A program made the translations under genes and the position numbers. The notes below the pieces were generated by a model. The model did no database searches and had not been told where the DNA came from. It saw only the letters and a list, made by a program, of their open reading frames with translations. From NCBI RefSeq assembly GCF_013822795.1, contig NZ_PNLB01000002.1, positions 62,001-126,000 on the forward strand: a stretch of 64,000 bases of DNA, written 5' to 3'. Each line of letters opens with the position of its first letter. Within the stretch, counting starts at the first letter, position 1. The stretch comes from Phenylobacterium sp. Lineage in GTDB: Bacteria; Pseudomonadota; Alphaproteobacteria; Caulobacterales; Caulobacteraceae. Shown here piece by piece: positions 8,844-39,253 of this stretch.

Positions 8844-9176
8844 ATGAACGGTTACGCTTGGCTAGGTCTGGCCATCGTCGCGGAGGTGATCGCCACCACC
8901 GCCCTCAAGGCCTCCGACAGCTTCTCGAAGCTTGGCCCGTCGCTGATCACGGCGGTCGGCTACGGGGTCGCCTTCTACTGCCTGTCGCACTCGATGAAGA
9001 CGGTGCCGGTCGGGGTCGGCTACGCGATCTGGTCGGGCGTCGGCATCGTGCTGATCACCATCATCGCCTGGGTGCTGTTCAAGCAGCGGCTCGACCCGCC
9101 GGCCCTGGCCGGCATGGGCCTGATCGTGGCCGGCGTGCTGGTGATCAACGTCTTCTCCAAGAGCTCGGCCCACTGA
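8844..9176 (+). CDS. Small multidrug resistance (SMR) family efflux transporter
   Basis: 110 residues and four predicted membrane helices, the standard SMR size. Glu14 in LAIVAEVIATTALKAS is the proton/substrate-coupling glutamate of EmrE-type transporters. GVGYAIWSGVGIVLI is the conserved TM3 motif with Trp and GxG. A strong GAGGAGCAGGG precedes the ATG. The dimer normally exports quaternary ammonium compounds or other cations in exchange for protons. The sequence looks closer to the EmrE/QacE branch than to the guanidinium-exporting SugE/Gdx branch (recognition only). Single gene, diverging from the EF-G-like gene. Confidence 0.9.
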   Translation: MNGYAWLGLAIVAEVIATTALKASDSFSKLGPSLITAVGYGVAFYCLSHSMKTVPVGVGYAIWSGVGIVLITIIAWVLFKQRLDPPALAGMGLIVAGVLVINVFSKSSAH

Positions 9177-9182
9177 TCGGCT

Positions 9183-9647: not shown

Positions 9648-9976
9648 CGATCGTCTCCGCTCTTGGTCTGGGCCAGATAGGCGTCCAGCCGATCGAACTG
9701 CGCATTCCACGCCCGCTTGCGCTGGCTCACCCAGGCCTCCAGCCCGGCGAAGGCGTCGGGCGCCAGCCGGTAGGTCCGCACCCGCCCGGCCTTCTGCGAG
9801 GAGACCATGCCGCTGGCCTCCAAGATCGCCAGGTGCTTCATCACCGACGGCAGCGCCAGGGTGGTCGGCGCCGCCAGCTGGCTGGCCGAGGCCGGGCCGC
9901 TGGCTAGCCGGTCGATCATCGCCCGCCGGCCCGGATCGGCCAGGGCCGTGAACACCCGGTCCAGCCCCTCGCTCAT
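9644..9976 (-). CDS. ArsR/SmtB-type winged-helix transcriptional regulator
   Basis: 110 residues. The winged-helix motif is visible: FTALADPGRRAMIDRLASG, then SQLAAPTTLALPSVMKHLAILEASGMV (recognition helix about 44-60), then the wing KAGRVRTYRL. No Cys-based metal site (such as CxC) is present, so it is not a metal sensor of the ArsR type but belongs to the DUF2087/HTH_20-like members that pair with SRPBCC proteins. It overlaps the GST stop by 4 bases upstream and the SRPBCC start by 4 bases downstream, implying tight co-expression and probable autoregulation. Confidence 0.9.
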   Translation of the reverse strand: MSEGLDRVFTALADPGRRAMIDRLASGPASASQLAAPTTLALPSVMKHLAILEASGMVSSQKAGRVRTYRLAPDAFAGLEAWVSQRKRAWNAQFDRLDAYLAQTKSGDDR

Positions 9977-10641
9977 GCCTCCTCCAGGAAGCGCGCCGGC
10001 ATCAGCTCGCGATAGGGGAAGTAGTCGAAGAACGGCCGCGCCTCAGTCAGCGTCCGCGCCACCGACGGCCGCGCCAGCAGCCGCTCGAAATAGCCGCCCA
10101 GCTCGCCCCGTTCCGCGCCCCACGGCTCGACGATCCCGGCGTAGAACAGCGCCGGGGTCGCCGCGCAGTCAGCCAGGCTGAAGGCCTCGCCCGCCGCCCA
10201 AGTGCGCCCGGCCATGTGACCGTCGATCAGGCCATAGGCCATCTGCAGCATGTCGCGGGCGTTCTCGACCCCGCGCGGATCCTTCTCACCGTCGGCCCGC
10301 ATCCGGTCGGCGACGATCTTCTGCATCGGCGTCATCACGTACTGGTCGAACAGGCGGTCCCACAGCCGCGCCTCCAGCCGCGCCTCGGCGTCCGCTGGCA
10401 GCATCGGCGGGCCGGGATAGTGCGTATCCAGATATTCGAGCTGGATGCTGGTCTCCGGCACCACCCGCTCCCCATCGACCAGCAGCGGGATCTTCGCGGT
10501 CGGCCACATCGCCGCGAACTCGTCCGCCGTCTGCGAAAGATCGAGCACCCGCGCCTCGAACGGCGTCCCGCGCTCATAGAGCCCGATCAGCACCTTATGG
10601 CAGTAGGACGACAGCGGGTGGAAGTGCAGCACCAGGCTCAT
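9973..10641 (-). CDS. Glutathione S-transferase family protein
   Basis: 222 residues with a two-domain GST layout. The thioredoxin-like domain (about 1-78) begins LVLHFHPLSSYCHKVLIGLYE and contains AKIPLLVDG with the cis-Pro, then VPETSIQLEYLD (the ES/TS glutathione-binding turn). The helical domain (about 85-215) includes AWDRLFDQYVMTPMQ-like helices and FSLADCAATPALFY. The Ser/Cys pair at 11-14 is a candidate thiol-activating residue. It is the first gene of the operon with arsR and SRPBCC, suggesting a detoxification function under ArsR control (inference). Confidence 0.88.
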   Translation of the reverse strand: MSLVLHFHPLSSYCHKVLIGLYERGTPFEARVLDLSQTADEFAAMWPTAKIPLLVDGERVVPETSIQLEYLDTHYPGPPMLPADAEARLEARLWDRLFDQYVMTPMQKIVADRMRADGEKDPRGVENARDMLQMAYGLIDGHMAGRTWAAGEAFSLADCAATPALFYAGIVEPWGAERGELGGYFERLLARPSVARTLTEARPFFDYFPYRELMPARFLEEA

Positions 10642-10656
10642 CAGCTCGGCTCCAAT

Positions 10657-10678
10657 TAGTTTCCGCAGGAGCTAACTA
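10657..10678. promoter_or_regulatory. Candidate ArsR operator: TAGTT-N12-AACTA
   Basis: An inverted repeat TAGTT (10657-10661) / AACTA (10674-10678) lies 16-37 bases upstream of the GST start codon, in the only AT-rich part of the leader. Its position suits repression of the GST-arsR-SRPBCC operon. The arms are short and the assignment is inference. Confidence 0.35.
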
Positions 10679-10766
10679 TCCGACACCGCACGTGGCAAGG
10701 AAAACTTTTCCCAGAAGCTAAGTATCTCGCCGCCTCGCCGGAGGAGGAAAGCCCCACACCCCGAGC

Positions 10767-10900
10767 GTCATCCCGGTCTGCGAAGCAAGACCGGGCCCCA
10801 TGAGCACCGGATGGATCATATCTCGGCTCGGCCGCGCCCCATCCAGCCCCTCGGGCGCGAATGGGTCCCGGACAAGCGCTGTCGCGCTTTCCGGGATGAC
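10767..10900. repeat. Interspersed long inverted repeat, family B copy 2
   Basis: A 134-base element with the same ends (GTCATCCCGG / CCGGGATGAC) and the same right arm GAATGGGTCCCGGACA as the copy at 6547. The loop region differs between copies. It lies between the DinG-type helicase end and the promoter of the GST operon. Confidence 0.8.
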
Positions 10901-10916
10901 ACCTTGTGTGCGCCGC

Positions 10917-25822: not shown

Positions 25823-27046
25823 ATGGCCGACTTTGGCGGCGGCGATCTCGACGCGTTCCGCGGCGAGGTGAAAGCCTGGCTCGAAGCCAACTATCCTCCC
25901 GAACTGCGCGATCCGAACGCCAAGACCGACTACGAGGCGGTCTGGGGCGGCCGCGCCTTCGCCGGCTCCAGCGACCCGCAGATCGTCTGGATGCAGCGCA
26001 TGGCGCAACAGGGCTGGACCGCGCCGACATGGCCCAAGGCCTACGGCGGCGGCGGCCTCTCGCCGCAGGAGGCCCGCATCCTCGACCAAGAGCTCAGCGC
26101 CGGCCGCTACCGCCAGCCGCTGGCCTCGTTCGGCGTCTGGATGCTGGGCCCGGTGCTGCTCGAATACGGCACCGAGGAGCAGAAGCAGGAATACCTGCCC
26201 AAGATCGTCCGCGGCGAAATCCGCTGGTGCCAGGGCTATTCCGAACCGGGCGCCGGCTCGGACCTTGCCGGCCTGCAGACCCGCTGCGAAGACAAGGGCG
26301 ACCACTGGCTGATCAACGGCCAAAAGGTGTGGACGTCGTACGCCAACAAGGCCGACTGGTGCTTCTGCCTGGTGCGGACCGATACGTCGAAGAAGCACGA
26401 GGGCATCTCGTTCGTGCTGATCGACATGACCACTCCGGGCGTCGAGACCCGGCCGATCCAGCTGATCTCGGGCGAGAGCCCGTTTTGCGAGACCTTCTTC
26501 ACCGACGTGAAGATCCCCAAGCCGGCCCTGGTCGGCAAGGTCAACGGCGGCTGGGAGATCGCCAAGCGGCTGCTGCAGTACGAACGCCAGAACATCTCCG
26601 GCGGCTTTGGCGGCGGCGGCGGCGCGGGCGGCGCGGCCGGCGACCTGGGCCAGATCGCCAAGTCCTATGTCGGGACCGACGCCTCCGGCGCCCTGGCCGA
26701 CAGCGACCTGCGCACACGCATCACCAAGAACAAGATGGACTTCGACTGCTTCTACAAGACCATCGCCCGCGTGGCGGCGGAGTCGAAGGCCTCCAACGGC
26801 CCTAGCGCCGCCACCTCGATCATCAAGTACGCCGCGGCGACCTTCGCCCAAGAGCGTTCGGAGCTGATGGTCGAGGCCATGGGCGCGCAAGGACTCGGCT
26901 GGGAAGGCGAGGCCTACACCCCGCTGGAACTGACCGCCACCCACGGCTGGCTGCGCTCGAAGGGCAACTCCATCGAGGGCGGCACATCCGAGGTGAACCT
27001 CAATGTGGTCTCCAAGCGGGTTCTCGGACTGCCCGACCCCAAGTAA
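25823..27046 (+). CDS. Acyl-CoA dehydrogenase, alpha-like paralog 1
   Basis: 407 residues, preceded by GGGAGGAAATAC. It has the ACAD fold: N-terminal helical domain, middle beta domain with WCQGYSEPGAGSDLAGLQT and WTSYANKADWCFCLVRTD, and C-terminal helical domain. Two features matter: the usual FAD-binding motif QxxGGxGY is replaced by GAQGLGW (near residue 355), while the C-terminal SIEGGTSEVN motif is present but with Gly at the position of the MCAD catalytic Glu. The paralogs at 27123, 28410 and 29716 share these traits. Its C-terminus (..KRVLGLPDPK) groups it with paralog 2. Probable role: alpha subunit of a heteromeric dehydrogenase for large or unusual acyl-CoA thioesters. Confidence 0.9.
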   Translation: MADFGGGDLDAFRGEVKAWLEANYPPELRDPNAKTDYEAVWGGRAFAGSSDPQIVWMQRMAQQGWTAPTWPKAYGGGGLSPQEARILDQELSAGRYRQPLASFGVWMLGPVLLEYGTEEQKQEYLPKIVRGEIRWCQGYSEPGAGSDLAGLQTRCEDKGDHWLINGQKVWTSYANKADWCFCLVRTDTSKKHEGISFVLIDMTTPGVETRPIQLISGESPFCETFFTDVKIPKPALVGKVNGGWEIAKRLLQYERQNISGGFGGGGGAGGAAGDLGQIAKSYVGTDASGALADSDLRTRITKNKMDFDCFYKTIARVAAESKASNGPSAATSIIKYAAATFAQERSELMVEAMGAQGLGWEGEAYTPLELTATHGWLRSKGNSIEGGTSEVNLNVVSKRVLGLPDPK

Positions 27047-27093
27047 GTGTGAACGGCGGCGCCCTGTTCTTCGGACGCCGTCCTTGATTTGAT

Positions 27094-27104
27094 CGACCTG
27101 ATTT
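27094..27104 (+). repeat. Leader 11-mer CGACCTGATTT, copy 1 (paired with 29687-29697)
   Basis: The 11-base word ends 18 bases before the start codon of alpha paralog 2. The identical word ends 18 bases before the start codon of alpha paralog 4. The equal spacing suggests that leader and gene were duplicated together, or that the word has a translational role. Confidence 0.5.
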
Positions 27105-27122
27105 CGAGAGGCGAGATTTCCT

Positions 27123-28334
27123 ATGGCTGACTTTGGCGGCGACGACCTGCAGGCCTTCCGCGGCGAGGCGGCGGCTTGGCTCGAGGCGAACTTCCCCAAG
27201 GCCCTGGCCGCCGACCCGGCCGCCCAGGTCGCCAAGGCGAGCGGCGGCGAAGAGACGCCGGACGCGCTGGCCTGGCGCAAGGCCATGGGCGCCAAGGGCT
27301 GGGGCGTCCCGACCTGGCCGGCGCAGTACGGCGGCGGCGGCCTCAGCCGTCAGCAGGCCCGCGTGCTGCACGAAGAAATGGCCAAGATCGGCGCCCGCAA
27401 CCCGATCGGCGGCATGGGCGTGATGATGTTCGGCCCGACCCTGATCGAGTACGGCACCGAGGAGCTGAAGCGCCAGCACCTGCCGGGCATCATCAACGGC
27501 GACGTCCGCTGGTGCCAGGGCTACTCCGAGCCGGGTTCCGGCTCCGACCTCGCCTCGCTGCAGACCCGCGCCGAGGACAAGGGCGAGACCTATCTGGTCA
27601 ACGGCTCGAAAATTTGGACAAGCGGCGCAAATCTCGCCGACTGGTGCTTCTGCCTGGTGCGGACGGACACGTCGAAAAAGCATGAGGGCATCTCGTTCCT
27701 GCTGATCGACATGACCACGCCCGGCGTCGAGGTCCGCCCGATCCTGCTGATCAACGGCACTTCGCCGTTCTGCGAGACCTTCTTCACCGACGTCGTCGTC
27801 CCCAAGAACCAGCTGTTCGGCCCGCTGAACGGCGGCTGGACTGTGGCCAAGCGCCTGCTGCAGTTCGAGCGCGACAACATTTCGGCCGGCCTCGGCGGCG
27901 GCTCGATCGGTGCGCCCGTCAACGCCCTGACCGTCAAGAGCGCGGCGACCAAGTATGTCGGCCTGGACGAGACCGGCCGGCTGGCCGACAGCGACCTGCG
28001 CCGCCGCATCACCGAGCACCTGATGGAGGTGCAGAGCTTCCAGCAGACGGTCCGCCGCGCCGCCGACGAAGCCAAGGCCGGCAACGGTCCGTCGGCCGCC
28101 ACCTCGATCATGAAGTACATGGGCGCCAAGGTGGCCATGGACCGCAACGAACTGATCGTCGAAGCCCTGGGCACGGCCGGCGCCGGCTGGGGCGGCGAAG
28201 GCTACGAAGACCCCGAATTGGCGGCCGTTCGCACCTGGCTGCGCTCGAAAGGCAACTCAATCGAAGGCGGCACGTCGGAGATCAATCTGAACGTCGTTTC
28301 GAAACGAGTGCTGGGCCTTCCCGATCCCAAGTGA
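27123..28334 (+). CDS. Acyl-CoA dehydrogenase, alpha-like paralog 2
   Basis: 403 residues, closely related to paralog 1: same N-terminus MADFGG.DL.AFRGE, same WCQGYSEPGSGSDLASLQT and same C-terminus SIEGGTSEINLNVVSKRVLGLPDPK. The position of the QxxGGxGY motif reads GTAGAGW (near residue 354), so the FAD pyrophosphate motif is again missing. An insertion-type segment GLGGGSIGAPVNALTVKS (about 255-275) is Gly rich, as in paralog 1. The 76-base spacer upstream contains CGACCTGATTT 18 bases before the ATG, shared with paralog 4. Confidence 0.9.
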   Translation: MADFGGDDLQAFRGEAAAWLEANFPKALAADPAAQVAKASGGEETPDALAWRKAMGAKGWGVPTWPAQYGGGGLSRQQARVLHEEMAKIGARNPIGGMGVMMFGPTLIEYGTEELKRQHLPGIINGDVRWCQGYSEPGSGSDLASLQTRAEDKGETYLVNGSKIWTSGANLADWCFCLVRTDTSKKHEGISFLLIDMTTPGVEVRPILLINGTSPFCETFFTDVVVPKNQLFGPLNGGWTVAKRLLQFERDNISAGLGGGSIGAPVNALTVKSAATKYVGLDETGRLADSDLRRRITEHLMEVQSFQQTVRRAADEAKAGNGPSAATSIMKYMGAKVAMDRNELIVEALGTAGAGWGGEGYEDPELAAVRTWLRSKGNSIEGGTSEINLNVVSKRVLGLPDPK

Positions 28335-28384
28335 TTTCATAGACCTGCCCGGAAACGGGAGCGCGAACCATAATCGTCGCTAAG

Positions 28385-28395
28385 ATAATGATTAT
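28385..28395. promoter_or_regulatory. AT-rich inverted repeat ATAAT-G-ATTAT before alpha paralog 3
   Basis: An 11-base perfect inverted repeat in an AT-rich island, 14 bases upstream of the ATG at 28410 and immediately before the AGGGAGA ribosome site. Such a run is striking in this GC-rich DNA. It could be a promoter element for an internal transcript or an operator. Confidence 0.35.
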
Positions 28396-28409
28396 TAGGG
28401 AGAATTTTC

Positions 28410-29618
28410 ATGGCTGACTTTGGCAGCCCCGATTTGGAAGCCTTCCGCGCCGAAGCCAAGGAGTGGCTCGAGGCGAATTTTCCGAAGTCCCTGGGCAAGG
28501 ACGTGGCCGGTCAAACCGCCGCGCTGATGAGCCCGGAGAAGCCCACCGGCGACCTCGCCGTGTGGAAAGAGCGCATGGGCGCCAAGGGCTGGGGCGTTCC
28601 GACCTGGCCCAAGGCCTATGGCGGCGGCGGACTGAGCGCGGCCGAGGCCCGCGTTCTGGCCCAGGAGATGGGCAAGATCGGCGCGGTGAACCCGATCGGC
28701 GGCATGGGCGTGGGCATGTTCGGCCCGACCCTGCTGGAGTACGGCACCGAAGAGCAGAAGCAGAAGTATATCCCGGACATCGCCACAGCAAAGATCCGCT
28801 GGTGCCAAGGTTTCAGCGAACCGGGCGCCGGTTCAGACCTTGCCGCCCTGCAGACTAAAGCGGAAGACAAGGGCGATCATTGGCTCGTTAACGGCTCGAA
28901 GATCTGGACCAGCGGCGGCCAGTACGCCGACATGATCTTCTGCCTGGTGCGCACTGACCAGACCCGCAAGCATGAAGGCATCTCGTTTGTTGTCTTCGAC
29001 ATGCACCAGCCGGGCGTCGAAGTCCGCCCGATCCGCCTGATCGCCGGCAACTCGCCCTTCTGCGAGACCTTCTTCACCGACGTGAAGGTGCCGAAGGAGA
29101 ACCTGGTCGGGCCGCTGCACGGCGGCTGGACGGTGGCCAAGCGCCTGCTGCAGCACGAGCGCAGCGGCATGAACGGCGGCCGCGCCGGCGGCGGGTCGAA
29201 CGTCTCGCTGGGCGTGCTGGCCAAGAAGTACGTCGGCGAGGACGAACAGGGCCGCCTGGACGATCCGGATCTGCGCACACGCATCATCCTCAACGAGATC
29301 GACCAGCGCGCCGTCGCCCAGACCGTGGTCCGCGCAGCGCTGGAATCGAAGGGCAACGCCGGCCCCTCGGCCGCCACCTCGATCATGAAGAACGCCTTCA
29401 TGAAGGCGACCCAGGACCGCGCCGAACTGACCCTCGAGGTCATGGGCCACCAGGGCCTGGGCTGGGAAGGCGACGCGTTCAGCGAGGAGGAGCGCACCGC
29501 GGTCCGCACCTGGCTGTCGGGCAAGGCCGGCTCGATCTACGGCGGCTCGAACGAAGTGCAGAGCAACATCATTTCCAAGCGTATCCTGGGACTCCCCGAC
29601 CTGACGCAGAACCACTAG
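28410..29618 (+). CDS. Acyl-CoA dehydrogenase, alpha-like paralog 3
   Basis: 402 residues. Its core WCQGFSEPGAGSDLAALQTKAEDKG and FCETFFTDVKVPKENLVG match the other three alphas. The C-terminus SIYGGSNEVQSNIISKRILGLPDLTQN groups it with paralog 4. The QxxGGxGY position reads GHQGLGW, and the aligned MCAD catalytic Glu position is Gly (YGGS). It retains an N-terminal MADFGS..LEAFRAE. Upstream is an 11-base AT-rich inverted repeat. It probably pairs with the beta-type protein encoded at 30966. Confidence 0.9.
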   Translation: MADFGSPDLEAFRAEAKEWLEANFPKSLGKDVAGQTAALMSPEKPTGDLAVWKERMGAKGWGVPTWPKAYGGGGLSAAEARVLAQEMGKIGAVNPIGGMGVGMFGPTLLEYGTEEQKQKYIPDIATAKIRWCQGFSEPGAGSDLAALQTKAEDKGDHWLVNGSKIWTSGGQYADMIFCLVRTDQTRKHEGISFVVFDMHQPGVEVRPIRLIAGNSPFCETFFTDVKVPKENLVGPLHGGWTVAKRLLQHERSGMNGGRAGGGSNVSLGVLAKKYVGEDEQGRLDDPDLRTRIILNEIDQRAVAQTVVRAALESKGNAGPSAATSIMKNAFMKATQDRAELTLEVMGHQGLGWEGDAFSEEERTAVRTWLSGKAGSIYGGSNEVQSNIISKRILGLPDLTQNH

Positions 29619-29715
29619 GGTGATCCCGAACCAGGCCGTTTGCGCCATGTCATTTCGCATGGTGCGGACGGCCGCGAGTTTTCAAACGACCTGATTTTTC
29701 TAGGAGACTATTTCA

Positions 29716-30921
29716 ATGGCAGATTTTGGCGGCGGCGATCTCGACGCCTTCCGGACGGAAGTGCGCGGCTGGGTCGAGGCCAACTTTCCGGCGGGCCTGA
29801 AGGGCAAGCCGAACCCGATGATGCGCGAAGAGCGCAGCAACCCGAGCCCCGACCAGGAAGCCTGGCGCAAGGCGGTGGGTTCGAAGGGCTGGGGCACCCC
29901 GACCTGGCCGGCCGAATACGGCGGCGGCGGACTGTCGGCGGCCGAAGGCCGCGTGATCATGCAGGAATTCCAGCGCGCCGGGGCCTACAACCCGATCGGT
30001 GGCATGGGCGTGATGATGTTCGGCCCGACTCTGCTTGAGTACGGCACCGACGCCCAGAAGAAAGAGCACATTCCGCCGATCTGCCGTGGCGATCTGCAGT
30101 GGTGCCAAGGTTTCTCCGAGCCGGGCGCCGGCTCTGACCTTGCTTCTCTTCAGTGCAAAGCTGAAGATAAGGGCGATCAATTCATTATTAACGGCCAAAA
30201 GATCTGGACCAGCGGCGCCCAATACGCTGACTGGTGCTTCTGCCTGGTGCGTACGGATACCTCGAAGAAGCATGAAGGCATCTCCTTCGTGCTGTTCACC
30301 ATGCACCAGCCGGGCGTCGAAGTTCGCCCGATCCCGCTGATCGCCGGCAACTCGCCCTTCTGCGAAACCTTCTTCACCGACGCCGTGGCGGACAAGAAGA
30401 ACCTGGTCGGCCCGCTGAACGGCGGCTGGACCATCGCCAAGCGCCTGCTGCAGCACGAGCGTTCGGGCCTGTCGGGCGCCGGCGGCGGCGGCTATGCCGG
30501 CGGCCGCGGCCTGCCGAAGCTGGCCAAGGACTATGTGGGCGTCGACGAACAAGGCCGCCTGGCCGACAGCGACCTGCGCACCCGCATCATCCTGAACGAG
30601 ATCGACGGCCGCGCCTTCCAGCAGACCGCCGTGCGCGCGATGATGGAAGCCAAGGGCAATTCCGGCCCGTCGGCGGCGACCTCGATCATGAAGAACGCCG
30701 GCACCCGCTGGATGCAGGACAAGGCCGAACTGACCCTCGAGATCATGGGTCACCAGGGCCTGGGCTGGGAAGGCGACGCCTTCACCGGCGAAGAACTGGG
30801 CGCCGTGCGCTCGTGGCTCGGCGGCAAGGCCACCACGATCTATGGCGGTTCGCAGGAGGTGCAGAACAACATCATCTCCAAGCGCATCCTCGGCCTGCCG
30901 GACCTGACGCAAAACAACTAA
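29716..30921 (+). CDS. Acyl-CoA dehydrogenase, alpha-like paralog 4
   Basis: 401 residues, most like paralog 3 (C-terminus TIYGGSQEVQNNIISKRILGLPDLTQNN). It has the same ACAD middle-domain motifs (WCQGFSEPGAGSDLASLQCKAEDKG), a Gly-rich loop GAGGGGYAGGRGLP (about 254-268) and GHQGLGW in place of QxxGGxGY. The 97-base spacer upstream contains CGACCTGATTT at 29687-29697. The beta-type gene starts 44 bases after its stop, the shortest spacing in the cluster. Confidence 0.9.
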   Translation: MADFGGGDLDAFRTEVRGWVEANFPAGLKGKPNPMMREERSNPSPDQEAWRKAVGSKGWGTPTWPAEYGGGGLSAAEGRVIMQEFQRAGAYNPIGGMGVMMFGPTLLEYGTDAQKKEHIPPICRGDLQWCQGFSEPGAGSDLASLQCKAEDKGDQFIINGQKIWTSGAQYADWCFCLVRTDTSKKHEGISFVLFTMHQPGVEVRPIPLIAGNSPFCETFFTDAVADKKNLVGPLNGGWTIAKRLLQHERSGLSGAGGGGYAGGRGLPKLAKDYVGVDEQGRLADSDLRTRIILNEIDGRAFQQTAVRAMMEAKGNSGPSAATSIMKNAGTRWMQDKAELTLEIMGHQGLGWEGDAFTGEELGAVRSWLGGKATTIYGGSQEVQNNIISKRILGLPDLTQNN

Positions 30922-30965
30922 CCCTCAGAACAACCACAGATATTTTCGAGAATAGGATTTAAGAC

Positions 30966-32102
30966 ATGGCCGTTCTGAACGAAGAACAGAGCATGCTCCG
31001 CGACGCGGCGAAGAGCTGGGTCCAGGAAAAGAGCCCGGTCACCGCCTTCCGCAAGATGCGCGACTCGGGCGTCGAGCTCGGCTACGACGCCGCCGCCTGG
31101 AACGAGCAGGCCGAAATGGGCTGGGCCGGGGTCATCATCCCGGAAGACTTCGGTGGTTCGAACTTCGGCTACCTGTCGATGGGCCTGATCCTTGAGGAGA
31201 TGGGCCGCACGCTCACCGCCTCGCCGCTGCTGGCCTCCGGCCTGGCCGCCGCCAGCGCCCTGATCCTCGGCGGCGACGACGCCCAGAAGGGCGAGTACCT
31301 GCCGAAGATCGCCGACGGCTCGCTGGTCGCCACGCTCGCCGTTGACGAAGGCGCTCACCACGCCCCGGAAAAGGTCGCGCTGGAAGCCAAGAAGTCGGGC
31401 GCCGGCTACGCCCTGAACGGCAAGAAGACCTTCGTGCTCGAAGGTCCGGCCGCCGGCCTGCTGGTCGTCTCGGCCCGCACCAGCGGCAAGCCGGGCGACA
31501 AGGACGGCATCAGCCTGTTCCTGGTCCCCGCCGACGCCAAGGGCGTGACCAAGCAGAACCTGAAGCAAGCTGACAGCCGCGGCGTCTCGAACATCACGTT
31601 CGACAACGTCGAAGTGGCGGCCGGCGCGCTGCTCGGCGCCGAAGGCAAGGGCTGGGACGTGCTGGAAGCGACCCTCGACCGCGCCCGCGCTGGCGTCAGC
31701 GCTGAAATGCTCGGCGCCGCGGTCCAGGCCTTCGAAACCACCCTCGACTACCTGAAGGTCCGCGTTCAGTTCGGCCAGGTCATCGGTTCGTTCCAGGCCC
31801 TGCAACACCGCGCGGCCAAGATGTTCACCGACCTGGAACTGGCCCGCTCGGCCGTCGAAGCCGCCCTGGCGGCGATCGACGCCGGCAGCCCGGACGTGCC
31901 GGAGCTGGTCTCGCTGGCCAAGGCCAAGATGGGCGACGTCTTCCACCTGGTGTCCAACGAGATGGTCCAGATGCACGGCGGCATCGGCATGACCGACGCC
32001 CACGACGCGGGCTTCTACATGAAGCGCGCCCGTGCAGCCGAGGCGGCCTATGGCAGCCAGTCGTATCACCGCGACCGCTACGCCAAGATCCAGGGCTACT
32101 AA
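30966..32102 (+). CDS. Acyl-CoA dehydrogenase, divergent beta-like subunit
   Basis: 378 residues and clearly a different ACAD branch from the preceding four. Its N-terminus is MAVLNEEQSMLRDAAKSWVQ, and the middle-domain YSEP motif region is poorly conserved (TLAVDEGAHHAPEKV in its place). The C-terminal domain keeps KVRVQFGQVIGSFQALQHR and a full QMHGGIGMTDAHDAGFY motif (near residue 338), the FAD-pyrophosphate motif missing in the four alphas. It lacks the final YEGTS-type motif. The two subunit types therefore complement each other's FAD-site motifs, like alpha2beta2 FadE/ChsE enzymes of steroid side-chain degradation. Confidence 0.88.
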   Translation: MAVLNEEQSMLRDAAKSWVQEKSPVTAFRKMRDSGVELGYDAAAWNEQAEMGWAGVIIPEDFGGSNFGYLSMGLILEEMGRTLTASPLLASGLAAASALILGGDDAQKGEYLPKIADGSLVATLAVDEGAHHAPEKVALEAKKSGAGYALNGKKTFVLEGPAAGLLVVSARTSGKPGDKDGISLFLVPADAKGVTKQNLKQADSRGVSNITFDNVEVAAGALLGAEGKGWDVLEATLDRARAGVSAEMLGAAVQAFETTLDYLKVRVQFGQVIGSFQALQHRAAKMFTDLELARSAVEAALAAIDAGSPDVPELVSLAKAKMGDVFHLVSNEMVQMHGGIGMTDAHDAGFYMKRARAAEAAYGSQSYHRDRYAKIQGY

Positions 32103-32115
32103 GACCTTGAGCTTC

Positions 32116-32137
32116 GCGCCCCGGCTCGCCGGGGCGC
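32116..32137. terminator. GC hairpin after the ACAD cluster
   Basis: Perfect 9-base stem GCGCCCCGG / CCGGGGCGC with a CTCG loop, 14 bases after the last ACAD stop. It is followed directly by the T-tract terminator at 32138-32193. Confidence 0.6.
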
Positions 32138-32193
32138 GGGGTCATGGAGAGCAAACGAAACCCCGCCAGCGCAAGCCGGCGGGGTTTTTGTTT
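32138..32193 (+). terminator. Rho-independent terminator, copy 1 of a 56-base duplicated module
   Basis: Stem AAACCCCGCC / GGCGGGGTTT followed by TTTTTGTTT. The whole 56-base module, including the upstream GGGGTCATGGAGAGCAAAC, recurs at 32916-32971 with 52 of 56 positions identical. It ends transcription of the ACAD operon. Confidence 0.85.
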
Positions 32194-32282
32194 CGGGGGG
32201 GATGGCCGTTAGCGCCGACCTCGAAGGGCGCGCGCAACATACATCAACACTCCCTTAGGTAGATTTCACCACACTCCCGGAC

Positions 32283-32873
32283 ATGACCAGGTCCGCGCTT
32301 CTGATCACGTTGATGCTTCTGGCGGCGTGCTCCCGCGCCCCATCGGATGGGGACACGATGAACATGCCCCCTGAGAGCGCCTCGCGCCGCGAGCCCCATA
32401 GCCTTGCCGGCCATCAGATTCGCGACCTGCCAGCTTCGACGGGGTGGAACGTCTCAAAAGCCGGCCCCATGTTCACCGCTATTCCCGTCCGGAACTTTGA
32501 AAAGCTCACGAAGCTTCCGGTCGAAGCGCGGGCTGACGACCAACGCGGCGACGTCTTGATTCATATCGCGGATGCGTCGCGGCCCGATCTCGACTTCGGT
32601 CGCCCGTACGAGCGCCGCCGCGAGCACGAGGGCCTTCAACTGTACGTTTCCACAAACCCGGATGTGCGCGGTGACCGCCTGCTGCTGCCTCAGCCGTATC
32701 AAGGCCGAATTGACTGCGTCGCCGGCGCGCTGGAGCGCGGCACGCCATCGTGCATGCTCGTGGTGACCTCGAATGGCATCCGCCACACCTTGACCATCGC
32801 TCCAGATCAAATCGCGCACTGGCGCGACTTTGTGGACGGCTATCTCCGGTTCATGGACGAGTTAGGCGCCTAA
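32283..32873 (+). CDS. Lipoprotein of unknown function
   Basis: 196 residues. The N-terminus MTRSALLITLMLLAAC is a lipoprotein signal peptide with lipobox LLAAC (Cys16), so the mature protein is predicted to be anchored in a membrane facing the periplasm. The rest is a mixed alpha/beta domain with no motif that I recognise, including VLIHIADASRPDLDFGRPYERRREHEGLQLYVS-like strands and two Cys (in RIDCVAGALERGTPSCMLVV) that could form a disulfide. It lies between the two copies of the terminator module. Base composition is lower in GC than the adjacent genes. Confidence 0.7.
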   Translation: MTRSALLITLMLLAACSRAPSDGDTMNMPPESASRREPHSLAGHQIRDLPASTGWNVSKAGPMFTAIPVRNFEKLTKLPVEARADDQRGDVLIHIADASRPDLDFGRPYERRREHEGLQLYVSTNPDVRGDRLLLPQPYQGRIDCVAGALERGTPSCMLVVTSNGIRHTLTIAPDQIAHWRDFVDGYLRFMDELGA

Positions 32874-32915
32874 CGCTTGGGCGCGTGCGACGCACCCAAG
32901 GTTTCGTCGAGGTGT

Positions 32916-32971
32916 GGGGTCATGGAGAGCAAACAAAACCCCGCCGGCGCGAGCCCGCGGGGTTTTTGTTT
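32916..32971 (+). terminator. Rho-independent terminator, copy 2 of the duplicated module
   Basis: Stem AAACCCCGC / GCGGGGTTT followed by TTTTTGTTT. It matches copy 1 at 32138 at 52 of 56 bases, including the leading GGGGTCATGGAGAGCAAAC. The two copies bracket the lipoprotein gene as direct repeats. Confidence 0.85.
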
Positions 32972-33012
32972 GGGGGCAGCTTTGCGCCAGAAGCGGATAT
33001 TGCCTCTCGGCC

Positions 33013-33174
33013 CAGTGGACAAGAGGCGCACGCATCACCCTCACTGCAACCAACCTGCTCGACGCCCAGCAACGGGTGAGGAACGCCGACGGCGTTACGC
33101 CCCTCCGCTATCAGTCGGCTTACGTCGACGCCATTGGCCGCACCCTAGAACTCGAGATCCGCAAGGCACTCTGA
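33013..33174 (+). pseudogene. TonB-dependent receptor C-terminal remnant
   Basis: An open stretch ending at TGA 33172-33174 encodes RITLTATNLLDAQQRVRNAD and then GVTPLRYQSAYVDAIGRTLELEIRKAL. This is the typical last three beta strands of a TonB-dependent outer-membrane receptor: NLLD/NLFD, a Gly-x-Thr-Pro turn, GR.., and a terminal R-K-hydrophobic end. Only about 50 residues remain, and the segment upstream is terminator sequence, so the rest of the gene is gone. It is likely a deletion relic. Confidence 0.75.
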
Positions 33175-33283: not shown

Positions 33284-35110
33284 TCAGATCAGGCCCTGCT
33301 CGCGGTAGACACGGCGCAGCACATCGAGCGAAGTTGAGCCGGCGTCTAAGCCCACGGCGTGGAACTGCCGAATATCGAAGGCCGAGCCCTGCCGCGCCTT
33401 CATCGCCGCGCGAAGATCCAGCCATTGGACCTTGCCGATCATGTAGCCCAGCGCTTGACCTGGCCACACGCAATAGCGGTCGATCTCAGTCTCCGCTTCG
33501 CTGCGCTTTCCGGTCACGCCGGTCATGTAGTCGACCGCCTGAGCCCGCGACCACCGCAGGTGATGTAGCCCCGTATCGACCACCAGGCGCGCGGCGCGGA
33601 ACATCTGGTCATTGAGGTATCCGATGCGGCCGAGGGGATCGTCGGCGTACATTCCCAGTTCGTCGGCCAGTTGCTCGGCGTAGAGCGCCCATCCCTCGTC
33701 ATAGGCGTTGAAGTCCGAGTTGGGCCTGCAAAGGTTGAGCTTGCGCACGAGCGGGATGGCGCGGTTCTCGATCAGCAGCGAGTTCTGCAGATGGTGCCCC
33801 GGATACGCCTCATGGAACGTGGTCGTCGGCAAGGTCCACGACGGCGTCGAGGCGGTGTCCGCAAGTTGCAGATAGTAGGCGCCAGGCCGCGAGCCATCCA
33901 CCGTGCCCGCCAGATAGTAGGGCGCGCTCGCGCCTTCGTTGATCGGCGGCGGACGACGGACGATCACCTGCGCCTTGGGCAGGGTCGAAAACGCCTCCGG
34001 CAGTCGCTTCTGGATACCGGCCATGAGGCTGCGCGCGGACGCCATGACGGACTCCCGTCCGGCGTCGGTGTTAGGCGCGATGAACCGCGGGTCGGTGAAG
34101 AGCGACGCCAGGCGGTCGCCGACCGAGCCCTGCGAAAGACCCTGCGCGCGCAGCAGCGCGTCGGCGCGCCCGCGGAGGTCGGCGACCATCTCCAGGCCCA
34201 TCTTGTGGATCTCTGCCGGCGTCAGGTTCGTCGACGTGCCGTTGCGCACCTGATGGGCGTAATAGGCGTCGCCCTCGGGAAGCCGCCAGACGCCGGCGTC
34301 GTCCGTCGCCTTCGGGAGCTCGGCTTCGAGCGCCGCGATCTGCGCCTCTAGCGCGGGGCGGATCTTCGTCGCGAGAATGGACTTGGCCTGGGCTCCCCAG
34401 GTTCCGTCGATGCCCTTCTCGTTGGTTCGCCGCACCAGCGAGGCGACGATCAGCGTCGCGTCGTCCGACTGTCCGCGCCACGCCTTCAGCGTGGCGATGC
34501 CGCGCTTGAGGATGAAGGCGGGCGGCCGGGCGCCGGCGCGCACGTCGTCATGAAAATGAGCGACCTCGTCACCAAGCACGGGGCCGAAACGCTCCAGCCG
34601 CGCGAGGTAGGCTTCGGCGTCCGCCGAGGTCGCGATCCGGTGGTTGCTGTCGAAGAAATCGGGCAAGGCCTGCGCCATGCCGCTGAGATGGCTGAGCACC
34701 CACGGCGACTGCGGCTGGGACGGCGATTTCACCCCGTAACTGAAGTCTCGCACGCCGCTTAGCAGCGTCGACCATTGCCAGGCCAGGGTGTCGTAATTGA
34801 TCCGATCGGTGGCCGAGAGCCGGCCGCGATCCAGCCGCCCCAGCCCCTTCAGCGCCGTTTCCAGGAGGCCGCGATAGGCCTCGCGGTCGGCCGGCGTGTC
34901 GCCGTCGAGCTGCGACTTCAGCGCCGCATACGGCCCGTTGTCGACGCCGAACGAAGAGCACAGGATCGGCGAGCGCCTGAGGAAGGCGTCATAAGTGCTG
35001 TCGCAGAGCGCCTGCAGCTCGGCGCTCTGCGCCTCGGCGGCATAGCCCGGCCCGCCGACGCCAAGCGCCACAGCCCCAGCGCCGGCCAACAGAAATTTGC
35101 GGCGATCCAT
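33284..35110 (-). CDS. DUF885 family protein, putative metallopeptidase, Tat-exported
   Basis: 608 residues. The N-terminus MDRRKFLLAGAGAVALGVGG is a twin-arginine signal, so a periplasmic location is predicted. The DUF885 catalytic signature FHEAYPGHHLQ is present at about residues 431-441 (HExxxGHH, a zinc site), and the C-terminal RCWPGQALGY-type element appears as YCVWPGQALGYMIGK. The family is distantly related to M3/M32 metallopeptidases, and the true substrates are mostly unknown. Start ATG 35110; it is the only gene in its unit, facing the TonB receptor relic. Confidence 0.85.
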   Translation of the reverse strand: MDRRKFLLAGAGAVALGVGGPGYAAEAQSAELQALCDSTYDAFLRRSPILCSSFGVDNGPYAALKSQLDGDTPADREAYRGLLETALKGLGRLDRGRLSATDRINYDTLAWQWSTLLSGVRDFSYGVKSPSQPQSPWVLSHLSGMAQALPDFFDSNHRIATSADAEAYLARLERFGPVLGDEVAHFHDDVRAGARPPAFILKRGIATLKAWRGQSDDATLIVASLVRRTNEKGIDGTWGAQAKSILATKIRPALEAQIAALEAELPKATDDAGVWRLPEGDAYYAHQVRNGTSTNLTPAEIHKMGLEMVADLRGRADALLRAQGLSQGSVGDRLASLFTDPRFIAPNTDAGRESVMASARSLMAGIQKRLPEAFSTLPKAQVIVRRPPPINEGASAPYYLAGTVDGSRPGAYYLQLADTASTPSWTLPTTTFHEAYPGHHLQNSLLIENRAIPLVRKLNLCRPNSDFNAYDEGWALYAEQLADELGMYADDPLGRIGYLNDQMFRAARLVVDTGLHHLRWSRAQAVDYMTGVTGKRSEAETEIDRYCVWPGQALGYMIGKVQWLDLRAAMKARQGSAFDIRQFHAVGLDAGSTSLDVLRRVYREQGLI

Positions 35111-35373
35111 TTGAACGCACCCTCCCCGACTTGAAGCTTCACTTTAGGGGCTGGCGAAAAGCCTGCGCAACAGACCACGGTCGCCACCAGCGCTTAGTCC
35201 GATTGGCCGTGATCGCCGCCAAGCAGGCCTTCGGTCTGTCAGCGACGAGCCCGACGCAGACGCACCGGATTTAGGTTCCATCGCTGTCCGAAGAGCGGAC
35301 GTCGTCACGGACCGCTGAGAGCCTAGCAGCTTCCGTGCGGGCTCCACGTCCGCTTCCGACGCCCCGCCGCGCG

Positions 35374-36162
35374 ATGATCCGCGCCATGGCCCGTCCGCCC
35401 TCCCCGCCCCTGCCCGTCATCGACCACAAGGGCGGCGCCAAGGCGAGCCAGTACCATCCCAATATCGGCTGGGAGATCTGCCAGCGGATCTGCGACGGGC
35501 TGACGATCGCGCAGATCGCGGCCGATCCGGCCATGCCGTCCTACGCGACCATCTTTCACTGGCGGAAGATGCATCCGGACTTCGCGGCGATGTACGACGC
35601 CTGCCGGGGTCAGCTGGCCCGCAAGCGCCAGCTGGAGGACGCCTCGTGGGCGCAGGCGACGGCGGTGCTGCGCGAGCGGGAGGTGGCGCGCGGCCTGCGT
35701 CGGGGGCGGCCGGCCGGGTCCGGACGCAAGAGCACCTTTACGATGGAGGCGGCGCTGGCGGTGTGCGTGCGGCTGGCGGCCGGGCAGGCGCTGAGCGCCA
35801 TCTGCGCGCGCCCGGACATGCCCTCGCTGAAGGCGGTCTACACCTGGCTCAAGCGGTTCCCGGTGTTCGAGGCCATGTACCTGGCCGCGCGCGAGGAACA
35901 GCGCATGTGGCTGGAGCTGAAGATCGAGCATGTGGCCGCCTCGTGCCACTGGACGCAGTTGGGGTCGGCCATGGCCCAGGTGGCGCAGCTTCAGGGACGG
36001 CTGGGGCGGCTGACGCCCAAGCACTATCGACCGGGCGGGCGGACCGCGTCGGTGAAGCTGGAGGGCGAGGGCGAGGCGTTCTGCGGCCCGCTGTTCGGCG
36101 ACCACGGCGGGCGGGTGGCGCGGGGGCATTGGCTGAACGGGCTGCTGGACGAGGACGGCTAG
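35374..36162 (+). CDS. Terminase small subunit-like protein with duplicated DNA-binding domain
   Basis: 262 residues from ATG 35374; a second ATG is at 35386 and a GTG at 35335, none with a clear ribosome site, so the start is uncertain. Two copies of one helix-turn-helix-like unit are visible: GWEICQRICDGLTIAQIA..MPSYATIFHWRKMHPDFAAMY (about 33-80 of the longest form) and ALAVCVRLAAGQALSAIC..MPSLKAVYTWLKRFPVFEAMY (about 140-185). Each matches the Sf6-type terminase small subunit unit. No portal, large terminase or other phage gene lies nearby. It may be a domesticated or orphan DNA-binding protein. Confidence 0.7.
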   Translation: MIRAMARPPSPPLPVIDHKGGAKASQYHPNIGWEICQRICDGLTIAQIAADPAMPSYATIFHWRKMHPDFAAMYDACRGQLARKRQLEDASWAQATAVLREREVARGLRRGRPAGSGRKSTFTMEAALAVCVRLAAGQALSAICARPDMPSLKAVYTWLKRFPVFEAMYLAAREEQRMWLELKIEHVAASCHWTQLGSAMAQVAQLQGRLGRLTPKHYRPGGRTASVKLEGEGEAFCGPLFGDHGGRVARGHWLNGLLDEDG

Positions 36163-36168
36163 CCGGCC

Positions 36169-39165
36169 TCACTGACGGGCCATGTCCGGCCGCGGCGCCA
36201 GGGCGCGGACCTGGCCGGCGATCCGCACCTGCATCGGCTCGCCCGCCAGCAGCGTCGCCTGGACCTGATCGCCGGCGATACGGACGGCCAGGGTGCGGCC
36301 GCGCCAGAACAGCTGGAACGACAGGCTGCGCCATTTGGGCGGCAGCTGCGGGTCGAGCGCCGGCATGTCGCCGGTCAGGTCGAGGCCGCCGAAGCCCATG
36401 ACCACCGCCTGCCAGATGCCGCCGAGCCCGGCGATGCGCACGCCGCCGGCGGCGCCGGGATCGGGGTCGAACTGGGCGATGCGGTGCAGGTACTTCAGGG
36501 CCAGCTCCGGGTCGCCGACCCGGGCGGCGACCAGGGCGTGCATCGCCGGGCTGAGCGAGCTGCCGTGACCGCAGCGCGGCTCGTAGTGGCGGAAGTTGAG
36601 CCGCGCGGCGTCGCCGGGGAATTCCTCGGGCAGCAGGGCCGCCAGGGCGACGACGTCGGCCTGCTTGACCACCTGCGAGCGTTGGATGCGCTCGCGGCCG
36701 AGCACGACGTCCATCGGCGCGGCGCGGCCGGCATAGGCGGACAGGTCGATGTCCTCCAGCCCGTGATAGCCGGCGAACTGCTCGTAGAGGCCGCTGGCCG
36801 GGTCCAGGCCGGTGACGAGGCGCTGGACCGCATCGCGCCAGTCGGCGAGCTCGGCGTCGGTGAGGGCGAGCTGGCCCAGCAGGCGCTCGGCGTGCGCGGG
36901 CCAGCGTGAGCGCAGCAGGTCTGCGACCTCCAGCCCGCGGGCGATGTTCCAGCGCGCCATGACGTTGGTGAAGGCGTTGTCGTCGATATCCTCGTGATAC
37001 TCGTCCGGACCGATGACGCCTCGGATGTGGCGCCGGCCGTCGGCCTCGGGCGTGGCGCGCGAGGCCCAGAAGCGGGCCGTCTCCAGCAGGATCTCGGCCC
37101 CGGCCGCCTGTAGGAAGTCGTCGTCGCCGGTGGCGCGCCAGTACTGCCAGACGGCGTAGGCGACATCGGCGCTGATGTGCTGCTCCAGCTTGCCGCAGAG
37201 GATGTCGACAAAGCCGCCGTCGGCGGCGACCACGCGCTCGGGCGTGGTCTCGACGCCGGTGTCGGCCGACTCCCAGGCATAGAGCGCGCCGCGATAGCCG
37301 AGCGCCGCGGCCTTGTCCCGCGCCGCCGGCAGGGTGCGAAAGCGGTACATCAACATCGCCCGCGCCGCCTGCGGCCAGACGGCGGTGTAGAACGGCAGCA
37401 GGTAGATCTCGGTGTCCCAGAAGACGTGACCGAAATAGCCGTCGCCGGTCAGGGCCCGCGCCCCGACCGAGACCGCCTCGTCGTCCGGGTTGGCGGCGCT
37501 GAGCAGGTGATAGGCGGCGAAGCGCACCACGCGTTGGACGTCGTTGTCGCCCTCGATCGCCACGTCGGCGCAGCCCCAGCGGTGCTCCCAGGCGCGCTCG
37601 TGGTCGGCGAGCACGCCGCGCCAGCCGGCTGAGCGGGCGCGGGCGAGCGCGGCCTCCGCGGCCGGGGCCGGATCCTCGCCCGGCGCATCGCCACGGGCCA
37701 CCGAGACCAGGCGGGCGAACTCGACGGGCTGGCCGGCGACCGAGCGCCAGCGCCAGATCCAGCGCAGCGGGAACGGCTGGTCCGCGGCGAGCAGATCCTC
37801 GCCGAGCCGCAGCTCAGCGGCGCCGGCCATCGCCACGCCCTTGTTCGCGCCTTCCGTCCGCCAGGAGCCGAGGTGCGGTTCCAGCCGATCGGGCTCCATG
37901 CCCAGGCCCGAGAGGTCGAAGCTGGCCTCGAGCTGCATGTCGACGCCGTCCTGGTCGACGGCGAACTGCAGCAGCTGCAGGCCGAGCGCGCGATCGGCCT
38001 GGGACAGCAGGCGCAGCTCGCGGCCGCTGCCGGTCACCCCGGCCGGGTTGCGATGGGTCCAGCCCGACAGCAGCGCGGCGCGGCGCATGTCCAGCTGGCG
38101 GACGCTGCGCAGCACCTCGCCCTCGCGGCCCAGCAGCACCTCGCCGTTCAGCAGCAGCCGCACCCGCGACCAGTCGGCGACCGGGACCAGGGCCGGCACC
38201 GGCGGCTCGACATTGGGCGTGTCGAACAGCCCGGCGACGTAGCAGCGCGGCCAGGAGGCCCAGCGCAGATAGCCGAGCCAGCTGACCCAGATCGGGCCGC
38301 GGCTGACCGAACGCGCCGCCCGCATGCCGAGGAAGCCGTTGGAGATCGCGAACCGGGACTCCACGCCGCTCTCGGTCAGCACCTGGTAGCCACGATGACT
38401 GAGCACCCAGCCGCGGTGCGTGGTCGGGTCCAGCGCCTGCTCCATCGGCCGGGACGGCGCCGCCGCGCAGGGCCGCAGCGCGCCGGCCGCCAGCGCCGCG
38501 ACGTCGACCTGGTCGAGACTGGAGACCACCAGCTGGGCGCCGGCCGCGTGCAGCAGGGCTTCGTCGCCGAGCCGCGCCACGCCGAGCGCGGCCATGCCGC
38601 CGGCCAGCGCCGCCAGCACCCCGGCGGGGGCGTCCTCGACCACCACGCATTCGGCCGGCGGGACGTCCAGCGCCTGGGCGGCGGCCAGGAAGATCCCCGG
38701 GTCCGGCTTGCCGGCCAGCCCCTCGCGGCCACTGACATCGGCCTTGAACATCGACAGCACCGGGCGTCCGTCCGGCAGCCACAGCTGCTGCAGCATGGCC
38801 GCGGCGTTCTTCGAGGACGAGGCTATGGCCAGCCGCACGCCGGCCGCCTCGAGCGCCGCGGCGAACCGCACCGCATCGGCGAAGGCGTCGAACTCGCCGC
38901 TGTCGATATAGCGGGCGACCAGCGCCTGCTTGGCGGCGGCGTAGGCCTGGACCCGCGCCTCGGCGGCCGATGGGGCGAGCAGCTCCAGGGCCCGGCGCGC
39001 GCCGTCGAGCCGCGGGCGACCGGCGACGTTGGCCTGGTAGAACTCGGTCGTGAAGGCGGCGGGGTCGGCGAACGGGGCCAGCGCCTCGCGCCAGGCCCGC
39101 TCATGCGGTGAGGCCACCAGCACGCCGTCCACATCGAAGATCGCGGCCCGCAAGGTCTTGCCCAT
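36169..39165 (-). CDS. Fused beta-phosphoglucomutase (HAD) and GH65 disaccharide phosphorylase
   Basis: 998 residues from ATG 39165 (a GTG at 39177 is possible). Residues 1-230 are a HAD beta-phosphoglucomutase: FDVDGVLV (nucleophile Asp11, acid Asp13), AIASSSKNA and GKPDPGIFLAAAQAL. Residues about 240-990 are glycoside hydrolase family 65: FWDTEIYLLPFY, GPDEYHED (about 718-725; Glu721 the likely general acid) and KQADVVALAAL (about 831). GH65 members phosphorolyse trehalose, maltose, kojibiose or nigerose to beta-glucose 1-phosphate, which the HAD domain would convert to glucose 6-phosphate. The fusion gives a two-step channel. The disaccharide cannot be assigned from sequence alone. Confidence 0.9.
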   Translation of the reverse strand: MGKTLRAAIFDVDGVLVASPHERAWREALAPFADPAAFTTEFYQANVAGRPRLDGARRALELLAPSAAEARVQAYAAAKQALVARYIDSGEFDAFADAVRFAAALEAAGVRLAIASSSKNAAAMLQQLWLPDGRPVLSMFKADVSGREGLAGKPDPGIFLAAAQALDVPPAECVVVEDAPAGVLAALAGGMAALGVARLGDEALLHAAGAQLVVSSLDQVDVAALAAGALRPCAAAPSRPMEQALDPTTHRGWVLSHRGYQVLTESGVESRFAISNGFLGMRAARSVSRGPIWVSWLGYLRWASWPRCYVAGLFDTPNVEPPVPALVPVADWSRVRLLLNGEVLLGREGEVLRSVRQLDMRRAALLSGWTHRNPAGVTGSGRELRLLSQADRALGLQLLQFAVDQDGVDMQLEASFDLSGLGMEPDRLEPHLGSWRTEGANKGVAMAGAAELRLGEDLLAADQPFPLRWIWRWRSVAGQPVEFARLVSVARGDAPGEDPAPAAEAALARARSAGWRGVLADHERAWEHRWGCADVAIEGDNDVQRVVRFAAYHLLSAANPDDEAVSVGARALTGDGYFGHVFWDTEIYLLPFYTAVWPQAARAMLMYRFRTLPAARDKAAALGYRGALYAWESADTGVETTPERVVAADGGFVDILCGKLEQHISADVAYAVWQYWRATGDDDFLQAAGAEILLETARFWASRATPEADGRRHIRGVIGPDEYHEDIDDNAFTNVMARWNIARGLEVADLLRSRWPAHAERLLGQLALTDAELADWRDAVQRLVTGLDPASGLYEQFAGYHGLEDIDLSAYAGRAAPMDVVLGRERIQRSQVVKQADVVALAALLPEEFPGDAARLNFRHYEPRCGHGSSLSPAMHALVAARVGDPELALKYLHRIAQFDPDPGAAGGVRIAGLGGIWQAVVMGFGGLDLTGDMPALDPQLPPKWRSLSFQLFWRGRTLAVRIAGDQVQATLLAGEPMQVRIAGQVRALAPRPDMARQ

Positions 39166-39253
39166 GCTCACCACCACTGCAGCGCGGCCCGATATTAGGA
39201 AGGGCCGCGCCAGTGAGACACTCAGGTGGAACCCTGCGCGCCGCCGCCGCGGC

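What the first reader, a model, noticed from the sequence alone, without database searches (positions are those of the whole stretch)
32138..33174. Lipoprotein gene bracketed by 56-base direct terminator repeats next to a decayed TonB receptor
Two 56-base modules, 52/56 identical, lie 722 bases apart and bracket the lipoprotein gene. Right after the second copy is the last ~50 codons of a TonB-dependent receptor without its body. A recombination between repeated terminator modules could have deleted a receptor gene and inserted or fused the lipoprotein segment. The direct repeats can also still drive loss of the lipoprotein gene.
Basis: partly seen in the sequence, partly recalled or inferred. 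Interest (0 to 1): 0.55.

Follow-up and report, generated by a model that had tools for sequence, protein, structure and literature searches.

The report
Stacked imported genes behind operon terminator
The two repeated terminators most likely mark where foreign genes were stacked, one import behind another, in a landing slot behind a metabolic operon that in related bacteria sometimes holds anti-phage defence genes.

Summary
In detail: two terminator modules (73 nt, 88%; 52/56 in the core) bracket an orphan lipoprotein gene and are followed by a receptor C-terminus without a body. They are the only two copies in the genome. Four close relatives have one copy and, in the sequence at hand, neither lipoprotein nor tail. 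Copy 1 is the ordinary terminator of an acyl-CoA dehydrogenase gene (ACAD). Between it and a terminase-small-subunit-like gene lies a variable slot: 27 of 82 loci in the genus, 0.27-6.1 kb, low GC3. At least 10 of 67 slot proteins match defence models, 0 of 116 beyond it. The lipoprotein itself matches none. Operon-end scars also sit inside two other slots: in G024 a 212-nt copy of ACAD's 3' end plus terminator, in G023 a 41-nt ACAD piece. Best reading: successive imports entered at the operon end and stacked; copy 2 and the receptor stub are junction scars. Receptor deletion by recombination between the terminators is rejected on geometry.

The parts
30966..32102 (+). Last gene of a row of five acyl-CoA-dehydrogenase-like genes (25823-32102); left border of the slot (ACAD)
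   Evidence: Pfam Acyl-CoA_dh domains, E 1e-31 and below 1e-6; ortholog at E<=1e-100 in 88 of 101 genus genomes
32103..32198 (+). Terminator copy 1 (T1): GC-rich hairpin, 20-nt linker, terminator hairpin with T-run; the operon's ordinary terminator
   Evidence: single orthologous copy in G022, G023, G085, G071; a strong hairpin plus T-run follows ACAD in 69 of 81 loci tested
32283..32873 (+). Orphan lipoprotein gene, 196 aa (lipobox LAAC, motif recalled); first cargo block
   Evidence: GC3 0.77 against 0.85-0.91 for the five ACAD-like genes; no Pfam match above cut-off, no NCBIfam, PHROGs or PADLOC match; one clear homolog, 40%, E 7e-40, in G074 among 390 family genomes
32904..32976 (+). Terminator copy 2 (T2): read as the scar of an older operon end; similarity may reach up to the lipoprotein stop codon at 32871
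   Evidence: 73 nt, 88% to T1; extension upstream weak: 125 of 5000 shuffles and 851 of 20000 window pieces score as high
33016..33174 (+). Last ~52 codons of a TonB-dependent-receptor-like gene, truncated at the junction with T2
33284..35110 (-). DUF885 gene, 608 aa, convergent to the stub; with it the second cargo block
   Evidence: Pfam DUF885 E 5.6e-149; best relatives only 49% identical in 390 family genomes, 48% at best in the listed rows for the genus
35335..36162 (+). Terminase-small-subunit-like gene (TERM), right border of the slot; homology with sister species resumes at about 35339-35344
   Evidence: Pfam Sf6_terminase E 4.5e-31, phrog_1482 3.4e-29
36169..39177 (-). HAD-GH65 fusion gene, absent at this position from G022 and G023: a second variable point beyond TERM

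Best explanation
The locus is a variable cargo slot between the terminator of an acyl-CoA dehydrogenase gene (ACAD) and a terminase-like gene in one genus (Phenylobacterium, inferred). Foreign DNA repeatedly enters directly behind the terminator. Here two imports are stacked: an older block (receptor stub plus DUF885 gene, directly behind T2) and a second block (lipoprotein gene) between T1 and T2. Most likely each import carried an ACAD end and terminator, because it came from the same slot of a related strain. It recombined by homology at ACAD and was joined on its far side without homology, or closed into a circle and integrated by a single crossover; either leaves a 5'-truncated ACAD end or bare terminator between the new and the old cargo. 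Shown: the repeat, its uniqueness, single-copy relatives, variable low-GC3 cargo, defence genes in the slot of other species, and operon-end pieces inside two other slots. Inferred: order of events, the recombination route, donor identity, and that T2 and the stub are scars of two events.
For: T1 single and no lipoprotein or tail in four relatives with ACAD 96.6-97.6% identical. Slot between ACAD and TERM in 27 of 82 loci, 274-6067 bp. GC3 median 0.77 for 67 slot ORFs against 0.90 for 116 ORFs beyond TERM, p 1e-9. PADLOC at 1e-5: at least 10 of 67 slot ORFs in 7 of 27 slots, traced one by one, against 0 of 116, Fisher p 3e-5. G024: ACAD from 113 nt before its end plus terminator copied, 212 nt, 86%, 1.8-2.0 kb downstream, frameshifted, between a PEGA-domain gene and a PDC-M41 pair; its coding part is 94/102 to its own ACAD and at most 88/100 to seven other ACADs; the terminator query has 3 matches in the G024 genome, all at this locus, one hairpin-only. 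G023: 41-nt internal ACAD piece (38/41) between a TonB_C-like gene and an Mrr nuclease. The best ACAD-like match in 106 kb of control sequence is E 1.3e-6, against 4e-35 and 1e-10 for these two. The duplicated units of G000 and G024 both end at the terminator's T-run, while their left ends differ.
Against: Only 3 of 27 slots carry such scars; 24 show none by these tests. G023's piece comes from the middle of ACAD, not its end. T2 carries no ACAD coding sequence and its extension to the stop codon is weak. T2 is about equally far from T1 of G000, G022, G023 and G085 (88-89%), so it cannot be dated or assigned to a donor. No donor was found for any cargo. In 11 of the 27 loci TERM is only 28-37% identical, so orthology of the right border is uncertain there. 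Slot ORFs came from a simple ORF caller and some may be spurious; proteins of one system are not independent in the Fisher test. The window's own cargo is not known defence. One genome per species is held, so strain-level gain and loss could not be seen.
Confidence: 0.55

Rival explanations
1. Site-specific integration: an integrase uses the ACAD 3' end/terminator as its attachment site, and T1 and T2 are attL and attR of a decayed element.
For: Direct repeats at a gene's 3' end flank the cargo in G000 and G024; the 3' edge is the same, the T-run.
Against: The repeated units differ in left edge (G024 starts 113 nt inside ACAD, G000 at the terminator), and G023 has only an internal ACAD piece. 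Among the 25 of 33 Pfam families shown for the 67 slot ORFs the only mobility gene is an IS1595 transposase; 8 families were not shown.
Confidence: 0.15
2. Tandem duplication of the operon end followed by deletions, with cargo inserted later between the copies.
For: The G024 fragment is closest to its own ACAD (94/102), as a duplicate would be.
Against: Needs extra steps, and in G000 the two terminators are 12% apart while T1 is 94-97% like those of G022 and G023; unconstrained decay of T2 could still explain that.
Confidence: 0.15
3. The lipoprotein gene simply came with its own terminator, which resembles T1 because terminators of these bacteria look alike.
For: Hairpin-only matches of 28-46 nt do recur among terminators in this genus; upstream extension of T2 is weak.
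Against: The 19-nt identical linker stretch lies outside the terminator hairpin and the 16-mer occurs in 101 genus genomes only at this locus; the 73-nt module has no third match in the genome; a second slot (G024) repeats its own terminator too. The lipoprotein homolog in G074 has no similar module in the sequence read behind it.
Confidence: 0.1
4. One reading: recombination between terminators deleted a receptor gene that stood here.
For: A receptor stub does follow T2.
Against: Geometry: no terminator can lie inside the receptor gene, and the lipoprotein gene still lies between the copies; no receptor in this place in 41 other loci searched.
Confidence: 0.04

Closest known systems
Core defence hotspots cDHS1/cDHS2 of Pseudomonas aeruginosa (PMC10250203, passages seen)
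   Same: Fixed flanking genes, variable cargo with diverse defence genes, no clear mobile element; the paper proposes transduction plus homologous recombination between conserved flanks.
   Different: Much smaller (0.27-6.1 kb here; 1-224 kb, median 26 kb there); the paper expects no mobile-element scars from that route, whereas here pieces of the flanking gene and terminator lie inside some slots. Most slots here have no known defence gene.
Defence islands and 41 integration hotspots of E. coli (PMC10121019, passages seen)
   Same: Hotspot between conserved genes with exchangeable defensive cargo, some islands with no known mode of mobilisation.
   Different: There mostly prophages, integrative elements or transposons; no such element was seen here.
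Homology-facilitated illegitimate recombination and single-crossover integration of circularised linear DNA (PMC3240628, abstract seen)
   Same: Homology on one side and a non-homologous joint on the other, or a single crossover, would leave a truncated duplicate of the target as seen in G024.
   Different: Shown experimentally with marked DNA; here only inferred from scars.
Genomic islands at gene 3' ends (for example at trmE or dusA; PMC8409611, search listing only)
   Same: Cargo placed behind a conserved gene.
   Different: Those use an integrase and an att core; neither was found here.

Membership tests
Gene-flanked defence hotspot | Same flanking genes in many genomes | tested here: met
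   ACAD and TERM flank the slot in 27 of 82 loci; TERM 28-37% identical in 11 of them
Gene-flanked defence hotspot | Cargo differs between genomes and looks foreign | tested here: met
   Slot 274-6067 bp; GC3 0.77 against 0.90
Gene-flanked defence hotspot | Enriched in defence genes over the neighbourhood | tested here: met
   At least 10 of 67 against 0 of 116, in 7 of 27 slots; additionally a Drt2-like gene in G085, where the contig ends before TERM can be seen
Gene-flanked defence hotspot | The window's own cargo contains a known defence gene | tested here: inconclusive
   Lipoprotein: 0 PADLOC families. DUF885 and stub were scanned within A1, but only 25 of 143 matched families are shown; none of those shown is a DUF885 or receptor family by name
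Integrase-borne genomic island | Integrase or recombinase gene in the cargo | tested here: inconclusive
   None among the 25 of 33 Pfam families shown for 67 slot ORFs, apart from one IS1595 transposase; no integrase among the window slot's ORFs
Integrase-borne genomic island | Direct repeats of constant length at both ends (att) | tested here: not met
   Repeat units differ: 212 nt, 73 nt, 41 nt internal
TonB-dependent receptor (the stub) | Similarity to receptor C-termini | tested here: met
   33 of 60 genomes; plug domain in 1 of 4 homologs tested
TonB-dependent receptor (the stub) | Plug and barrel present | tested here: not met
   Only the last ~52 codons remain; no Pfam match
Intrinsic terminator (T1, T2) | GC-rich hairpin followed by a T-run | tested here: met
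   Sequence and folds; the simple scan marks T2 on the + strand and both on the - strand; termination itself not testable here

The most novel reading that the evidence does not exclude
A compact hotspot without a visible integrase that grows by self-stacking: alleles of the same slot pass between related strains by recombination at the border gene's end and, when the far joint falls short of the right border, accumulate one behind another, each older block marked by a decaying copy of the border gene's 3' end and terminator. The scars would be a readable record of successive imports.
Probability: 0.4. Interest if true: 0.6.

Novelty: new member of a known kind. Interest (0 to 1): 0.42.

Why it matters
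How defence hotspots without recognisable mobile elements are built is called an open question in the passages seen of PMC10250203. A small slot whose border gene leaves truncated copies of itself between cargo blocks gives a testable signature of the joint and a way to order imports. It also points to candidate defence genes: cargo of unknown function in the slot, such as the 568-aa protein of G022 and the 562-aa protein of G071.

Tried and rejected
Rejected: receptor deletion between the repeats (geometry); dispersed repeat; assembly duplication (the copies differ at about 9 of 73 positions). Known RNA family: no Rfam match at gathering scores in the window.

Led nowhere: plasmid and phage searches (the plasmid protein search gave one Nocardia record, 33%, E 4e-3; DUF885 gave three plasmids at 41-44%); viral contigs, 8 pattern matches, none confirmed; lipoprotein in 385 class genomes, one weak match beside own; structure of the lipoprotein from one sequence, mean pLDDT 38.5, not used; promoter scan, 0 sites. 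Fragments of the TERM side inside slots: one 25-nt perfect match in G087 (E 4.6e-9), not pursued; control hits in G023 and G088 at E 4.5e-5 and 2.4e-5. The structural extension of T2 upstream (a possibly conserved first hairpin) is not supported by its lowest-energy fold.

Rows left out of counts: of 88 genomes with ACAD at E<=1e-100, 7 were not fetched (G006, G017, G026, G077, G108, G109, G116); one fetched locus (L172) held no ACAD; the 82 loci are from 81 genomes (G022 twice), and many contigs end within a few kb. For G086 the ACAD copy next to TERM was taken, not the better-scoring one. The tail search covered 41 other loci, not the 40 fetched later. The Drt2-like ORF of G085 is outside the 67 ORFs.

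No Phenylobacterium defence hotspot was seen in the listed results (one search listed 10 of 174 papers; open-licence library only).

Full report
Observation. The two modules are real and exact as described: 73 nt, 88% identical, 778 nt apart start to start, the only two matches in the draft genome and, at the level of a 16-mer, present in only 3 of 101 genus genomes, each time only at this locus. The genus is taken to be Phenylobacterium because genome G023 has a 670,238-base contig of the same length, motif and strand as a record of P. haematophilum DSM 21793; this is an inference.

Copy 1 is ordinary. It follows the acyl-CoA dehydrogenase gene 30966-32102 (Pfam). A strong hairpin with a T-run follows the orthologous gene in 69 of 81 loci tested. 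G022, G023, G085 and G071, whose dehydrogenase is 96.6-97.6% identical, have one module of this kind (G071's lacks the linker motif) and no second one downstream in the sequence searched (only 1.4 kb in G085).

The slot. DNA similarity to G022 and G023 stops at the end of the terminator and resumes at about 35339-35344, just before a terminase-small-subunit-like gene. Between these points each species has different genes: here the lipoprotein, T2, receptor stub and DUF885; in G022 a 568-aa protein with a sub-threshold ORC-CDC6-like match; in G023 a TonB_C-like protein and an Mrr nuclease. Of 82 loci from 81 genomes, 27 have the terminase-like gene downstream, at 274-6067 bp; in 11 of these it is only 28-37% identical. 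Slot ORFs (67 from 24 genomes) have a GC3 median of 0.77, ORFs beyond it (116 from 26 genomes) 0.90, p 1e-9.

Defence content. In PADLOC at 1e-5 no family matched the 116 control ORFs. Of the 67 slot ORFs, 19 were looked at one by one and 10 matched: retron type II-A RT and its NDT partner (G065), PDC-M41 pair (G024), PDC-M30-like pair (G103), an AriA/PDC-M29-like ATPase (G010), a KAP ATPase PDC-S20 (G086), an Mrr nuclease (G023, 8e-7) and a DUF559 nuclease (G115, 5e-6). A second mREase_II member is counted but was not traced. G085 has a Drt2-like gene behind its terminator, on a contig that ends before the right border. Several large cargo proteins had no match (G022, G071, G025, G112). So 7 of 27 slots have an identified defence match and 20 have none identified here.

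Scars. Besides T2, two slots contain pieces of their own border gene. In G024 a 212-nt copy, 86% identical, runs from 113 nt before the end of the dehydrogenase through the terminator and lies between a PEGA-domain gene and the PDC-M41 pair; its coding part is frameshifted and closer to the resident gene (94/102) than to seven others (at most 88/100). In G023 a 41-nt internal piece (38/41) lies between its two cargo genes. In 106 kb of control sequence the best such match is 1.3e-6, and in 55 loci without the terminase-like gene 9e-6. Terminator copies of 60 nt or more were found in 2 of 82 loci, G000 and G024.

Reading. The repeated units in G000 and G024 both end at the T-run but begin at different places, which speaks for joining without a fixed site rather than a recombinase core. 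I read the window as an older import (receptor stub, DUF885) behind T2, and a second block (lipoprotein) between T1 and T2. The stub then is where the older imported fragment was cut, not a receptor deleted in place. Homology-facilitated illegitimate recombination or single-crossover integration (abstract of PMC3240628) would give such joints; the passages seen of PMC10250203 propose transduction and homologous recombination for core defence hotspots and expect no mobile-element scars. Which route acted here is inferred, not shown.

Cargo. The lipoprotein is nearly an orphan: one clear homolog, 40% identical, in G074 among 390 family genomes, at another place in that genome, five further matches at E 6.5e-4 to 0.01 being doubtful. 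The DUF885 protein has relatives of at most 49% identity in 390 family genomes and a solved relative, 3o0y. Neither has a tested function here. T2 still folds into a hairpin with a T-run and probably ends the lipoprotein transcript (inference).

Noticed in passing
window 36169-39177: HAD-GH65 fusion gene (beta-phosphoglucomutase-like plus glycoside hydrolase 65) lies between TERM and the 39254-41131 gene here, while these two are neighbours in G022 and G023: a second variable point. Its GC3 (0.94) is not foreign-looking.
   Followed up: partly
L242 (G009) 8225-11218 and L163 (G013) 12098-12247: In G009 a receptor-like gene related to the stub sits inside the dehydrogenase gene row, between the relatives of genes 2 and 3; in G013 one lies just upstream of the row. 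The window's row has none.
   Followed up: partly
G022 C1:1790101-1791234 (L157): A second, 96%-identical copy of the last dehydrogenase gene elsewhere in G022, without a strong terminator behind it.
   Followed up: no
L054 4971-6674 (G022) and L138 4620-6305 (G071): Large low-GC3 cargo proteins (568 and 562 aa) in the same slot without a PADLOC match: candidates for unknown defence genes.
   Followed up: partly
L148 (G087), slot: A 25-nt perfect copy of sequence just upstream of TERM lies near the left end of the G087 slot (E 4.6e-9); may be a scar of the other border or a dispersed repeat.
   Followed up: no
window 35335-36162: A terminase-small-subunit-like gene found in 23 of 101 genus genomes at E<=1e-30, often downstream of the dehydrogenase: a phage-type gene that looks resident; its role is unknown.
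   Followed up: partly
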